A DNA stretch of 64,000 bases from Succiniclasticum ruminis DSM 9236 (GTDB lineage Bacteria; Bacillota; Negativicutes; Acidaminococcales; Acidaminococcaceae), in assembly GCF_900112895.1 (NCBI RefSeq), contig NZ_FONL01000009.1, positions 1 to 64,000 of the forward strand, read 5' to 3'. The notes beneath the pieces were generated by a model. The model worked only from the letters and a program-made list of their open reading frames with translations. It did no database searches and had not been told where the DNA came from. The first letter of the stretch is position 1. Every line of letters starts with the position of its first letter. The translations under genes were made by a program, and so were the position numbers. Shown here in pieces: positions 29,240-37,567 of this stretch.

Positions 29240-30451
29240 ATGATTATCAGGAAAGCAGGTGACACGTTGCTGAAAACCGTAATGACAATCATAGCTTCGT
29301 TCTGGCTTATGCTGGTCCCGGCTGTGGTTTCGGGAAATACAGTACAGGCACAGCAGGGGGCGGCAGCTGTGCAGTCAGACAGTAAAGCTGACGATACGCA
29401 GACTGCGGCTACTGTGCAGTCAGAGAATAAAACCGCCGATACGCAGGCTGAAGAAACCCAAACGGCGGAAGCAGAAAAGAAGTATCCCGTGACGGAACCT
29501 GTAGCAGGCAGGAATGACGTAGTGGCCTTTATCGATGCCGGCAACGGCTTCCGCGTGAATATCCCGGCAGAGCTGGAACTGTATCCTTTAGGGGTCAACC
29601 CGGTTGCAGTGCTGCGGGGGGAGAACAAGGAAAAAGGCCTGCGCCTGGCCATCGATGTTTCAGCCGTCGACAGCAAAGGCCCGCTGATGCCGTTCCAGGT
29701 AGAGGCGTTCCGGGAGGATTTCCTCCGCCTTGTAAAAAACAGTGTGAAAGACAGTGCTAACGGCAAAAAGATACTGAGCAGCGGGGAAGTGGAACTGGCA
29801 GGACAGAAAGCGGTCCATGTGGTATCCACGAATCTGACTACAGACGGAAAGCGCAGGCTGCTGCGTGACGAATATGTCTTTGTCACCCAGAACCGCATGT
29901 TCGTGGTGATGTACATAATGGACGAGAAACGCTATCCGGAATATCAGGAACGGATCCCGGAATGGATGGAGAGCGTGGAGATATCCCAGGTCTGGAAGAA
30001 GATCAATGTGGAAGGGACGTCCCTTGCAACGGAGGTGCCTGCCTCCTGTATCAGTCTGAAGGATCCTTCGGAAGTCAGCATGACCATGGAAGTTTACGGA
30101 AACGAAAGCATCATGGTGGGACTGGTGTCTTATCCCGCCGGGCAGTTTACGTTCATGCCACCGGCGCTTGGCAACCTGCAGCAGACTGAAAAAGCTGCGG
30201 TGCTGGAAGGACTGAAACAAAAACTCGCTGCCGACACGAAAGGCACGGCAGCGGGCTATAAGGGCGAGTTCGTTACGGTCAGCGGACACAGTTGTGTGAA
30301 AGCGACCTATGAAGTCAGCGGCAGTAACAATGAGAGTTACACCTTCGTCAAAGACGGAAGGGTATATGAACTGGGCTTTGTATTCAAACCGGAACAGGAA
30401 AAAGCCATCCGGCCGGTGATCACACATGTGCTGGAAAACCTGAAGATATAG
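29240..30451 (+). CDS. Secreted protein of unknown function
   Basis: A 403-residue exported protein with a hydrophobic signal (about residues 10-35, cleavage near VQAQQ). A low-complexity T/A/E/Q linker (about 35-85) contains a repeated SxxKxxDTQ pattern. Two similar domains of about 150 residues follow, each with a beta-rich start (NGFRVNIPAELELYP; GTSLATEVPASCISL). The second half may be a duplication of the first. ATG 29240 has GGAG rather close (three bases); TTG 29267 is another option. The next gene, the lipoprotein barnase, follows by 27 bases and may be co-expressed. Confidence 0.65.
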   Translation: MIIRKAGDTLLKTVMTIIASFWLMLVPAVVSGNTVQAQQGAAAVQSDSKADDTQTAATVQSENKTADTQAEETQTAEAEKKYPVTEPVAGRNDVVAFIDAGNGFRVNIPAELELYPLGVNPVAVLRGENKEKGLRLAIDVSAVDSKGPLMPFQVEAFREDFLRLVKNSVKDSANGKKILSSGEVELAGQKAVHVVSTNLTTDGKRRLLRDEYVFVTQNRMFVVMYIMDEKRYPEYQERIPEWMESVEISQVWKKINVEGTSLATEVPASCISLKDPSEVSMTMEVYGNESIMVGLVSYPAGQFTFMPPALGNLQQTEKAAVLEGLKQKLAADTKGTAAGYKGEFVTVSGHSCVKATYEVSGSNNESYTFVKDGRVYELGFVFKPEQEKAIRPVITHVLENLKI

Positions 30452-30478
30452 GCTAAAGCAAAGGAGGACTCTGTATCA

Positions 30479-31063
30479 ATGAAAAAAGTATTTGCGATTG
30501 CGTTAGCGGTTATCATGATGCTGAGCGTGGTCCTGGGCTGCGGCGGCAAAAAAGCGGCACAGCCTTCACCGTCCCAGACGAAGATCACGGAGAGCCAGAA
30601 CAAAGAGAAAAATTATGCTGCTTCGGAAAAAACAAAACAAAAAGACGACAAACAGCAGAAACAAACCTCTTCAAAAACAAATGACCCGGCTGACAGCGCA
30701 GCTGCATCCGGGGCCAAAGTAAAAGTTGAGGAGGGCAAAGCCTATACCGATAAGGACCATGTAGCCGCTTATATCCATGTTTACAAGACCCTGCCTCCCA
30801 ACTACATTACCAAAGGGCAGGCCGCCAAACTGGGCTGGAAGAACGAAGGCACGCTGGATAAAGTCGCTCCCGGCAAAAGCATCGGCGGAGACCGTTACAA
30901 CAACTATGAAAAGAAACTGCCGGATAAACAGGGACGGACCTGGAAAGAATGCGACATCGATTACGTAAAGGGGAACCGGAACGCGAAACGGATCTGCTTC
31001 TCCAACGACGGACTGATCTATTACTCAGCGTCCCATTACCGTGATTTCGTCAGATTGTACTGA
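30479..31063 (+). CDS. Lipoprotein-anchored barnase-type ribonuclease
   Basis: A 194-residue guanyl-specific ribonuclease of the barnase family. Residues 1-20 are a lipoprotein signal with lipobox VLGC (C21). A flexible K/Q/S-rich linker runs to about residue 85, and the barnase domain covers 88-194. Catalytic residues line up with barnase: E157 (E73), R167 (R83), R171 (R87) and H186 (H102), with the same spacing of 14 and 15 residues between E, R and H. Ordinary barnase is freely secreted; a lipid anchor is unusual. AAGGAGG precedes the ATG. The matching inhibitor follows directly. A contact-dependent or released toxin is the likely role, inferred from the architecture. Confidence 0.9.
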   Translation: MKKVFAIALAVIMMLSVVLGCGGKKAAQPSPSQTKITESQNKEKNYAASEKTKQKDDKQQKQTSSKTNDPADSAAASGAKVKVEEGKAYTDKDHVAAYIHVYKTLPPNYITKGQAAKLGWKNEGTLDKVAPGKSIGGDRYNNYEKKLPDKQGRTWKECDIDYVKGNRNAKRICFSNDGLIYYSASHYRDFVRLY

Positions 31064-31086
31064 TGTCAGCCAAGGAGGTTCAGCAT

Positions 31087-31368
31087 ATGGAAATCGTATT
31101 GGATGAAAAAAGATTTAAGGGCCGGTCAAGAGCCCATGCCTATTTAAAAGAAAAACTGAATTTACCGGACTATTACGGAAGAAACCTGGACGCTTTGTAC
31201 GATTGTCTGGGGGAAATCATGGAAGAAACGGTTATCGTGGTGCCTAAGATTATCCAAAACAAGGAATATCTGGGCGAATACGGGCAGACCATGCTGCGGG
31301 TCTTCCGGGACGCGGCAGAGGAAAACCCGGCGCTGACGGTGCAGTTTAAAGAGGCTGCCAAAAAGTAA
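31087..31368 (+). CDS. Barstar-type ribonuclease inhibitor
   Basis: A 93-residue cytoplasmic barstar that protects the cell from the barnase encoded just upstream. ATG 31087 is chosen because AAGGAGG lies eight bases before it. The key inhibitory helix is intact: YYGRNLDALYD has D35 and D39 at the same positions as in the Bacillus protein, with Y29 and N33 also kept. The stop touches the stop of the convergent permease gene with no base between. Confidence 0.93.
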   Translation: MEIVLDEKRFKGRSRAHAYLKEKLNLPDYYGRNLDALYDCLGEIMEETVIVVPKIIQNKEYLGEYGQTMLRVFRDAAEENPALTVQFKEAAKK

Positions 31369-32280: not shown

Positions 32281-32922
32281 ATGAATCCTGTAAGCAGGAT
32301 GGAAACAATTATGCGTAAAGAACTGGATTATTTCTGGGTAGGCAAAGAATACGGAGGAAGGCAGAGCCTGCTGCCGGATTTTATCATGCGATTTGCGGGG
32401 TGCGCCGCCGTTACGGCCTGCGACAGCCTGATCTATATGACGCTGTATAAAAACAAAAAAGATCTTTGCCCCTTTTCTACAGACGAGCTGCGGGGCAGGG
32501 ACTATGTGAACTTCTTCAAAACGGTAAAGCCCTACCTCCGTCCCCGTTTCGGAGGGGTAAACAGGCTGGAAATCTTTGTGGATGGGTTCAAAAGGTTCCT
32601 GAAGGAGCATGGACAGACGGCTCTGGAAGTGCTTCCCTGGTCCGGCAACAATACGGAGAAGAACACAGTCGACACCATCAAGCGGCAGATAGACCGGGGC
32701 TTCCTGATCCCATACCTGCTGCTGCATCACCAGAACCCCGCCTTTGAAAACTACGAATGGCACTGGTTCCTGCTTACCGGCTACGAGGAAAAACCGGATG
32801 GGCGTTTTATGGTGAAAGCCGTGACCTACGGTTCGTTTGAATGGCTGGATTTTGCCAAACTCTGGAACACGGGTTATAACCGTAAGGGGGGACTGGTACT
32901 GTTGCAGGACAGTGTTTCGTAA
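32281..32922 (+). CDS. Hypothetical protein, possible papain-like cysteine hydrolase
   Basis: A 213-residue soluble protein. A conserved-looking block near the N-terminus, RFAGCAAVTACDSLIYM, and a later YEWHWFLLTGYEE followed by MVKAVTYGSFEWLDFAKLW recall the Cys and His/Asn positions of C39-like cysteine peptidases. The match is by eye only. There is no signal peptide. Starts at 32281, 32299 and 32311 are possible; none has a strong Shine-Dalgarno. Confidence 0.55.
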   Translation: MNPVSRMETIMRKELDYFWVGKEYGGRQSLLPDFIMRFAGCAAVTACDSLIYMTLYKNKKDLCPFSTDELRGRDYVNFFKTVKPYLRPRFGGVNRLEIFVDGFKRFLKEHGQTALEVLPWSGNNTEKNTVDTIKRQIDRGFLIPYLLLHHQNPAFENYEWHWFLLTGYEEKPDGRFMVKAVTYGSFEWLDFAKLWNTGYNRKGGLVLLQDSVS

Positions 32923-34657: not shown

Positions 34658-35236
34658 TTAAAAACTGTGGTTAAAGCCTAACGAGAACCCGAAAGAGTTG
34701 TGCCCCGGATTCTTTGTCTGCATACCGTTGGAACTGTGGCTGAACATATAGCCCAGGCTGATAGAATTACTTTTTGTGTATTTCCACGTAAACCGTGGCC
34801 CAATACGCCACAAAAATCCCCATGGACGCCCCTGGGCGGGAAAGGATTTGTTGTAAATCAGGAAAGAACCGGAAAATTCCAAATCGCCGTAAAGCTTACC
34901 GCTTATCGGGCGCTCCCAGCGTATCATGACGGCAGGTCCCAGTCCCACTGCATTACTTTTCCGCCGAATATCATCATCTGTCGTGTAGCCGTGGGCGCGG
35001 GTAAAGGTAAGGCCCCGGTGAAAGGTCAGACCTGCGTGTTCATGGGCTTTCTGGAAAACATGAACATTGTAGTCATCGATAAACCGCCGGCCAAATTGAT
35101 GATGTCTCAGGTATTCTGCCTGAATCTCCACATTACTTGCCTTTGCCAGGCAGACAGTATTGGGAAAGATCGTAATCATAAGGAAAGAGAATAAGGTTAT
35201 TGCAAAACAGATAATTTTAATGGACTGGTTTTTCAT
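34658..35236 (-). CDS. PagL-like lipid A deacylase (acyloxyacyl hydrolase)
   Basis: A 192-residue outer membrane protein on the minus strand. It has an N-terminal signal (to about residue 32), then alternating beta strands fitting an 8-stranded barrel, and it ends in an aromatic residue (NHSF) as barrel proteins do. The motif SHSSNGMQTKNPG near the C-terminus matches the His-Ser-Asn catalytic region of PagL, which removes the 3-position acyl chain of lipid A. GGAG lies nine bases before the start. It supports a lipopolysaccharide-bearing outer membrane. The family match is by motif only. Confidence 0.68.
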   Translation of the reverse strand: MKNQSIKIICFAITLFSFLMITIFPNTVCLAKASNVEIQAEYLRHHQFGRRFIDDYNVHVFQKAHEHAGLTFHRGLTFTRAHGYTTDDDIRRKSNAVGLGPAVMIRWERPISGKLYGDLEFSGSFLIYNKSFPAQGRPWGFLWRIGPRFTWKYTKSNSISLGYMFSHSSNGMQTKNPGHNSFGFSLGFNHSF

Positions 35237-36659: not shown

Positions 36660-36727
36660 TTCTTTCAGGAGTGTAACATTTGCAGGAACGGATAATCCTG
36701 CGGCAGAATTCGAAGGGAGCATTTGTT

Positions 36728-37567
36728 ATGAAACAGTTAAAAAAATTAGTCATCGCAGGCGCTTTAGGTGTACTGACATTGGCATTAGCCGGTTGCGGCG
36801 GCGGAGATAAAAAGGCAGAGAACGCGAAACCGGATACATCCAAGCCGGTCATCGTAGGTGTAAACCCGGGACCCCATGCTATCATCATGGAAAATGTAAA
36901 GAAAATCGCGGAAAAGAAAGGGCTGAAGATTGAAATCAAAGAGTTCAGTGATTTCGTGACCCCTAATGCGGCGCTGGCTGCCGGCGAGATTTGGGCTAAC
37001 AGCTATCAGCATGAACCTTTCCTGAAAGCCACCATGAAGAAAGAACCGAAATTCAAACTGGCGAAAGCTTTCAACACTGCGCTGTTCCCCATCAATATTT
37101 ACTCCAAAAAGCTGAAACCCGGCGACAAGATTCCCGACGGCGCCAAGATCGGCATCCCCAATGATCCTACTAACGGCGGTCGCAGCCTGCTGCTGCTGGC
37201 GGCCAACAACCTGATCAAGGTTAAGAATCCGAAGGATATCACTACGACGGTACAGGATATTACGGATAATCCTCATAAATTCCAGATTGTGGAACTGGAA
37301 GCGGCGGCAATCCCCCGCAGTCTGGATGACCTGACCTGCGCGGCTATTAATACGACCTACGCCCTGAATGCCGGCCTGAACCCGGCCAAGGATCCTATCG
37401 TAAAAGAAACGGCTGACTCCCTGTACGTTAACATCGTGGCAGTACAGGAGAAAGACCTGAAAGACCCGCGGCTGAAAGTATTCCAGGAAGCCTACCAGTC
37501 CAAAGAAAACGGTGACTTCATCAAAACAAAGTTCCCGGGATCCGTATATCTGGGATGGAAGGAATAA
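36728..37567 (+). CDS. MetQ/NlpA-type substrate-binding lipoprotein (copy 1)
   Basis: A 279-residue solute-binding lipoprotein of the methionine ABC transporter type. The lipobox is LALAGC (C23 or so) after MKQLKKLVIAGALGVL. Family motifs include GVNPGPHAIIMENV, IPNDPTNGGRSLLLL and LEAAAIPRSLDD. No metN or metI lies nearby, so it must work with a permease encoded elsewhere. A second copy is at 44629. The M20 amidohydrolase follows by 79 bases, which hints at uptake and processing of N-acylated amino acids (inferred). No SAM riboswitch is seen upstream. Confidence 0.88.
   Translation: MKQLKKLVIAGALGVLTLALAGCGGGDKKAENAKPDTSKPVIVGVNPGPHAIIMENVKKIAEKKGLKIEIKEFSDFVTPNAALAAGEIWANSYQHEPFLKATMKKEPKFKLAKAFNTALFPINIYSKKLKPGDKIPDGAKIGIPNDPTNGGRSLLLLAANNLIKVKNPKDITTTVQDITDNPHKFQIVELEAAAIPRSLDDLTCAAINTTYALNAGLNPAKDPIVKETADSLYVNIVAVQEKDLKDPRLKVFQEAYQSKENGDFIKTKFPGSVYLGWKE

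What the first reader, a model, noticed from the sequence alone, without database searches (positions are those of the whole stretch)
30479..31368. Barnase as a lipoprotein, with barstar next door
The catalytic residues and inhibitor contacts are intact, but the nuclease has a lipobox and a 60-residue flexible linker. A surface-tethered RNase would be a contact toxin, or could be passed between outer membranes as lipoproteins are in some bacteria. This differs from freely secreted Bacillus barnase and from polymorphic-toxin fusions.
Basis: partly seen in the sequence, partly recalled or inferred. Interest (0 to 1): 0.7.

Follow-up and report, generated by a model that had tools for sequence, protein, structure and literature searches.

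The report
Membrane-tethered barnase with barstar guard
A bacterium related to rumen species encodes a classic RNA-cutting enzyme (barnase) as a predicted fat-anchored envelope protein with its inhibitor next door; the arrangement is real and shared by many relatives, and it looks more like an RNA-digesting enzyme than a contact weapon.

Summary
Window 30479-31063 encodes a 194-aa barnase with a lipobox (VVLGC, Cys21) and about 67 residues of stalk, mostly predicted disordered, before a confidently modelled nuclease domain. Barstar follows; its likely start is 31087, not 31063. All 32 Negativicutes loci read keep lipobox and catalytic residues; 31 have barstar beside it, the other lies at a contig edge. 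The layout is not special to Negativicutes: 58 of 80 named relatives pass the lipobox rule.

The contact-toxin / outer-membrane-exchange reading is not supported. The genome has Lgt and LspA but no detectable LolA, and published work reports no LolA/LolB in Negativicutes, so the protein most likely stays on the inner membrane; a proteome paper leaves that open. The gene is in 13 of 14 genus genomes and its domain is under purifying selection. In three ruminant-gut Bacteroidales MAGs, probably two lineages, a barnase of this kind is fused to a GH10 xylanase. I favour an envelope RNase for RNA scavenging, with barstar as self-protection. Localisation, activity and benefit are inferred. New variant of a known kind.

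The parts
30461..30467 (+). ribosome-binding site AAGGAGG of the barnase gene
   Evidence: sequence read
30479..31063 (+). lipoprotein barnase, 194 aa, PF00545
30479..30541 (+). lipoprotein signal peptide with lipobox VVLGC, Cys21 (lipidation predicted)
   Evidence: Lgt and LspA present in genome
30542..30742 (+). low-complexity, lysine-rich linker, mostly predicted disordered (residues 22-88)
30743..31060 (+). RNase domain (residues 89-194)
31072..31078 (+). ribosome-binding site AAGGAGG of barstar, in the 23-nt gap
   Evidence: sequence read
31087..31368 (+). barstar, 93 aa, PF01337, no signal peptide seen
29240..30451 (+). upstream exported-looking protein without Pfam or NCBIfam match, 27 nt before barnase, possibly co-transcribed; recurs upstream of barnase in part of the genus, not part of the conserved pair elsewhere

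Best explanation
A two-gene module: an exported, lipid-anchored barnase-type endoribonuclease on a flexible stalk, and its cytoplasmic inhibitor. The pre-protein is made with barstar present to silence any copy that folds in the cytoplasm, passes through Sec, is lipidated by Lgt and cut by LspA, and stays (in this Negativicute) on the outer face of the inner membrane, the stalk letting the nuclease sweep the periplasm and cell-wall mesh. There it cuts RNA that enters from lysed cells and food, and other envelope enzymes and importers take the pieces further. It works like a tethered counterpart of a periplasmic scavenging RNase such as E. coli RNase I, whose family is not found in the genome. 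Shown: sequence, lipobox conservation, predicted fold, pairing, selection, presence of Lgt/LspA, no detectable LolA or RNase T2. Inferred: export, lipidation, membrane, activity, substrate, benefit.
For: Lipobox 32 of 32, catalytic residues identical. Present in 13 of 14 genus genomes and 10 of 10 that are at least 90% complete (counted). NG86 dN/dS over ten chosen, partly overlapping pairs: nuclease domain 0.02-0.11, linker 0.14-0.46 (7 of 10 computable), barstar 0.04-0.23 (9 of 10 computable), several with saturated dS: a conserved enzyme on a free stalk, not a diversifying weapon. Barstar over cut-off in 30 of 31 barnase genomes against 3 of 28 without, Fisher p 2.6e-12, relatedness not corrected. 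Where barnase has no adjacent barstar, 9 of 10 genomes have a barstar elsewhere (no background rate measured), and none of the ten fetched barstar loci shows a barnase within about 1.5 kb, as expected of producer protection. LolA not found, ringing in 6 of 14 controls; Lgt and LspA present. RNase T2 family not found. A 5'-nucleotidase-family protein with a signal-peptide-like start is present. Most direct: in three ruminant-gut Bacteroidales MAGs a barnase domain is the C-terminal part of a GH10 xylanase, with a lipobox in the two that have an N-terminus, beside aldolase-, reductase- and sugar-kinase-like genes and, downstream, large exported-looking proteins that I read by eye as GH9-like (L065) and GH115-like (L090).
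Against: No localisation, activity or growth data. PMC5491611 found 17 of 78 Veillonella outer-membrane-fraction proteins with a lipoprotein signal (passages), so retention in the inner membrane is not settled. The LolCE search does not discriminate (it rings in 13 of 14 controls). The GH10 fusion is in another phylum, and the L090 and L100 copies are nearly identical in the domain, so it is two lineages at best. NCBIfam hits of the 5'-nucleotidase are all below cut-off; no nucleoside importer was searched for. The gene is not found in 28 of 59 family genomes (at least one of these, G021, has its end at a contig edge), so it is dispensable. A nuclease-inhibitor pair fits antagonism too, and solo barstars exist. 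Relatives with a peptidoglycan-binding domain show that wall display matters in some lineages.
Confidence: 0.55

Rival explanations
1. Contact or short-range antibacterial toxin: the tethered nuclease is handed to neighbouring cells, with barstar as immunity.
For: Toxin-then-inhibitor gene order in 31 of 32 Negativicutes loci; barstars without barnase in two genomes of two genera (G010, G043) and a second copy in G022, at a locus type where G021 still has the end of a barnase; a barnase split over two frames beside an intact barstar in G027. Barnase is a C-terminal tip of hemagglutinin-repeat proteins in the same class.
Against: No other domain found besides the nuclease and a mostly disordered stalk. 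LolA not detected (PMC5007114, PMC5491611 passages). Core in the genus, purifying selection. Entry into the target cytoplasm is unexplained.
Confidence: 0.17
2. Passed between outer membranes of kin as lipoproteins are in myxobacteria (TraA/TraB exchange, recalled).
For: Lipobox and an inhibitor gene that could protect kin.
Against: LolA, the known carrier to the outer membrane, not detected. I did not search for TraA. No evidence of exchange.
Confidence: 0.03
3. Envelope RNase with another job: degrading RNA of lysing siblings or phages, or RNA turnover in vesicles or biofilm.
For: Same anatomy; basic linkers in Negativicutes (median net charge +5, n = 22) against acidic ones elsewhere (median -10.5, n = 34) could hold RNA.
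Against: No positive evidence; no defence library was searched. No third gene recurs with the pair across genera.
Confidence: 0.15
4. Intracellular toxin-antitoxin pair whose signal peptide is decorative.
For: Adjacent inhibitor under its own ribosome-binding site.
Against: Lipobox kept in 32 of 32 Negativicutes loci and other export signals in relatives; decorative signals would not be conserved.
Confidence: 0.04

Closest known systems
Bacillus barnase/binase with barstar (PF00545 / PF01337)
   Same: Model 49-54% identical to the 50 listed Foldseek matches, target-normalised TM-score 0.91-0.96 apart from two fusions; catalytic residues; barstar Y29/D35/D39.
   Different: Lipobox and a 67-residue stalk; the R59 position is Tyr and barstar W38/W44/E76 are Y/I/D in the window.
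Simple barnase-barstar gene pairs noted by Zhang et al. 2012 (PMC3482391, 12 passages read)
   Same: Stand-alone pair, toxin-like gene then inhibitor, 'without notable polymorphism'.
   Different: The passages shown do not describe lipid or membrane tethering of these pairs; the rest of the paper was not read.
Polymorphic toxins with a C-terminal barnase (CdiA/hemagglutinin type)
   Same: Same nuclease family; the next gene in L155 is a barstar match, L156 has a similar frame that I did not score.
   Different: No hemagglutinin repeats in the window protein. Two genomes of another family carry the large form (frames of 671 and 1349 aa); the longest frame among the 31 own-family hits is 237 aa.
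E. coli periplasmic RNase I (RNase T2 family)
   Same: Proposed role only: envelope RNase for scavenging.
   Different: Unrelated family, PF00445 not found in the genome; RNase I is soluble (recalled).

Membership tests
Barnase / microbial RNase family PF00545 | Profile match above the curated cut-off and barnase fold | tested here: met
   60.9 bits vs 24; predicted model matches barnase and binase structures
Barnase / microbial RNase family PF00545 | Catalytic residues (K27, E73, R83, R87, H102; recalled numbering) | tested here: met
   identical in 32 of 32 rows
Barnase / microbial RNase family PF00545 | Guanyl-specific RNase activity | not testable with these tools
   needs an assay
Barstar PF01337 | Profile match and D35/D39 core | tested here: met
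   70 bits vs 23.4; identical in 28 of 28 rows aligned, out of 31 barstars at hand
Bacterial lipoprotein | Basic n-region, hydrophobic h-region, lipobox Cys | tested here: met
   32 of 32; shuffle control
Bacterial lipoprotein | Lgt and LspA in the genome | tested here: met
Bacterial lipoprotein | Lipid attached, protein in membrane | not testable with these tools
   needs labelling and fractionation
Outer-membrane / surface lipoprotein | Canonical Lol route (LolA) in the genome | tested here: not met
   LolA none; LolCE hits below cut-off and unspecific; Lnt hits below cut-off. An unknown route is not excluded
Polymorphic toxin system | Delivery or pretoxin domains with a C-terminal toxin tip | tested here: not met
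   PF00545 is the only Pfam match at E 0.001; stalk mostly disordered
Polymorphic toxin system | Adjacent dedicated immunity protein | tested here: met
   31 of 32 loci
TraA/TraB outer-membrane exchange cargo | TraA/TraB in the genome | not tested
   no search made

The most novel reading that the evidence does not exclude
Envelope-tethered barnases are a widespread, overlooked class of digestive RNases of gut and rumen bacteria: the same nuclease is hung on the envelope by a lipid, a membrane helix or a wall-binding domain, tuned in stalk length and charge to each kind of envelope, and even welded to a xylanase, with barstar kept as a general licence to produce it. Gut bacteria would thus eat RNA as they eat fibre.
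Probability: 0.35. Interest if true: 0.65.

Novelty: new variant of a known kind. Interest (0 to 1): 0.42.

Why it matters
Barnase is a textbook secreted enzyme whose natural role is poorly defined (recalled). A large set of tethered relatives, including a fusion to a hemicellulase, makes a nutritional role testable in culturable gut bacteria, and gives a natural probe of where lipoproteins sit in diderm Firmicutes without LolA, a question that passages of PMC5007114 and PMC5491611 leave open.

Tried and rejected
Third conserved gene: clustering of neighbours first suggested a gene shared by 23 loci; inspection showed reverse-strand frames over barnase and barstar, linked in the genus to a reverse-strand frame over the gene at 32281, an artefact. 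Other recurring neighbours are lineage-bound; the module is two genes.

Sorting by the residue after the lipidated Cys: Gly in 17 of 22, Ser in 4, Lys in 1, but the MetQ/NlpA-family lipoprotein in the same window (36680-37567) has the same Cys-Gly-Gly start, so it does not tell inner from outer membrane.

NCBIfam match to the acid-shock protein Asr: 21.8 bits against a cut-off of 50, over residues 1-121, mostly the linker; rejected.

Mobility: no match in the phage collection; 4 plasmid records match, 3 of them over 2.6 Mb, so perhaps not ordinary plasmids. The pair sits in different neighbourhoods in different genera, so it may have moved, but no vehicle was seen. On the tree the Negativicutes rows need 2 changes (23 rows, and L003 with L031), although starred branches alone force only 1; lipobox state needs 9 changes by a slightly looser rule (106 columns, many unresolved forks).

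Limits of the counts. The lipobox rule is a recalled PROSITE-like pattern plus a hydrophobicity count. L077 and L104 look like lipoproteins by eye but fail it; L079 and L100 begin at a contig end. 22 of the 80 named loci are Negativicutes from genomes that largely repeat L001-L030; one of them, L052, is titled Acholeplasmataceae but its contig is that of G020 in the window's family. Barstar was within the fetched locus in 69 of 80, two of them 1.5-2.5 kb away. The linker comparison left out L065 and L090 (xylanase fusions) and all rows without a rule-based lipobox; its rows are related, so its p-values are only a guide. R59 in named loci: R 14, Y 49, F 5, A 1, 11 of 80 unparsed. Four further barstar hits in the family are under the cut-off and were not counted. 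A1 uses 16 of 32 barnases, A3 28 of 31 barstars.

Literature: searches for barnase + lipoprotein + barstar, ribonuclease + lipoprotein + Negativicutes, barnase + extracellular + Lachnospiraceae, RNase + lipoprotein + barstar + contact-dependent, barnase + rumen, ribonuclease + GH10 + bifunctional + Bacteroidales (no paper) and rumen RNA degradation (10 of 83 listed) showed no title or abstract start on a tethered barnase; the library is open-licence PMC only.

Full report
What is there. At 30479-31063 the window encodes a 194-residue protein with a basic start, a hydrophobic stretch and the lipobox VVLGC, then a lysine-, serine- and glutamine-rich stretch of 67 residues, then a complete barnase domain. 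AlphaFold gives most of the domain pLDDT 95 or more and most of the stalk below 50. The 50 Foldseek matches listed are barnase, binase or engineered forms as far as titles tell, 49-54% identical. Barstar follows. Two separately initiated genes then lie 23 nt apart.

Is it conserved? Across the class, 35 of 380 genomes carry PF00545: 31 in the window's own family, 4 elsewhere. I read 32 loci of the small type: all have a lipobox by rule and 31 have barstar beside it; the exception (L027) ends at a contig edge. Of the 35 genomes, three are not in that set: G027, whose barnase is split over two frames, and the two large hemagglutinin-type forms. Catalytic residues are identical in 32 of 32. In the own genus 13 of 14 genomes have the gene, the one without being a 75% complete assembly. 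Over ten partly overlapping pairs the domain has dN/dS 0.02-0.11, while the linker drifts in sequence and length (0.14-0.46 in the 7 computable pairs). This is how a working enzyme on a free stalk looks.

Is it peculiar to Negativicutes? No. Of 80 named relatives (the best of 582 confirmed), 58 pass the lipobox rule and 69 have a barstar in the fetched locus; without the 22 Negativicutes, 36 of 58 pass. The records are labelled Bacillota, Bacteroidota, Actinomycetota and Synergistota, with one Mycoplasmatota label that conflicts with the genome grouping. The rest include N-terminal membrane helices with long stalks (e.g. L059, L092, L094), a peptidoglycan-binding domain (PF01471 in L060 and L107), plain signal peptides (L061, L086) and a tandem double barnase (L088, L089) (by eye). 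By rule-based lipobox, linkers are shorter and basic in Negativicutes (median 52 residues, charge +5, n = 22) and longer and acidic elsewhere (84, -10.5, n = 34; Mann-Whitney p 0.001 and 4e-10, rows not independent).

Where does it sit? The window has a PagL-like lipid A deacylase gene (34658-35236), a sign of an LPS outer membrane. Lgt and LspA are present. LolA is not found, though the same search rings in 6 of 14 control genomes, E. coli included. LolCE and Lnt hits stay under the cut-offs, but the LolCE search is unspecific. Antunes et al. 2016 (PMC5007114, passages) found no LolA or LolB in Negativicutes and suggested that lipoproteins may not go to the outer membrane or use an unknown system. 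Poppleton et al. 2017 (PMC5491611, passages) found 17 of 78 Veillonella outer-membrane proteins with a lipoprotein signal but no acyl modification, and called this not conclusive. The most economical place is the inner membrane, facing the periplasm. That undercuts 'surface-tethered', though it does not exclude an unknown export route.

What is barstar for? Within the family, barstar above cut-off is in 30 of 31 barnase genomes and 3 of 28 others (p 2.6e-12). Of the three, G021 has the end of a barnase at the contig edge; G010 and G043 have barstar without barnase. In ten named genomes whose barnase has no adjacent barstar, nine have one elsewhere, and none of the ten barstar loci fetched shows a barnase within about 1.5 kb; I did not measure how often barstar occurs in comparable genomes. 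Linkage thus looks dispensable, possession less so: this fits protection of the producer's own cytoplasm, as in Bacillus (recalled). It would also fit immunity, so it does not decide between the main reading and its rival.

What does it do? Against a weapon: no other domain found, no detected route to the surface, core presence, purifying selection. The weapon form exists in the same class: L155 and L156 (another family) are hemagglutinin-repeat proteins with a divergent C-terminal barnase, and L155's next gene is a barstar match. For digestion: the RNase T2 family is not found, and a 5'-nucleotidase-family protein with a signal-peptide-like start is present (NCBIfam hits below cut-off). Three Bacteroidales MAGs (goat abomasum, sheep rumen and the Tb.RUG series) carry GH10 xylanase and barnase in one chain, two with a visible lipobox, the third cut at a contig end. 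The L090 and L100 domains are nearly identical, so this is two lineages at best. The neighbourhoods of L065 and L090 hold genes that I read by eye as sugar-acid metabolism and GH9- and GH115-like proteins. Fusing a nuclease to a fibre-degrading enzyme makes sense for feeding and little for warfare.

Verdict. A real, conserved, tethered form of a known enzyme-inhibitor pair; new variant of a known kind. The mechanism I commit to is envelope RNA scavenging with a cytoplasmic safety inhibitor (0.55). The contact-toxin reading keeps 0.17, outer-membrane exchange 0.03.

Noticed in passing
L065:2750-4321, L090:2777-4321, L100:32-1261: GH10 xylanase and barnase in one polypeptide in three ruminant-gut Bacteroidales MAGs (L090 and L100 nearly identical in the barnase), lipobox in the two with an N-terminus, barstar adjacent.
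   Followed up: partly
L088:3878-4741, L089: Two barnase domains in tandem in one exported-looking protein of uncultured Clostridia; in L088 the second copy lacks the HY motif of the first.
   Followed up: no
L145, L146, L147, L149: Barstars without a complete barnase beside MFS- and ABC-F-like genes (L145-L147, by eye) and a metallo-beta-lactamase-fold lipoprotein (L145, L147, L149; Pfam run on L149 only); L149 keeps the end of a barnase at the contig edge.
   Followed up: partly
L148:2500-3400: Barnase split over two frames beside an intact barstar (a MAG, so it could be an assembly error).
   Followed up: no
window 29240-30451: Exported-looking 403-aa protein with no Pfam or NCBIfam match, directly upstream of barnase here and in 7 other genus loci, L033-L039 (L157 repeats L036).
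   Followed up: no
window 34658-35236: PagL-like lipid A 3-O-deacylase gene (33.3 bits, cut-off 23), a sign of an LPS outer membrane.
   Followed up: no
L155:2575-5019, L156:1534-5940: Hemagglutinin-repeat proteins with a divergent C-terminal barnase in another Negativicutes family; the next gene is a barstar match in L155 and a similar unscored frame in L156.
   Followed up: partly
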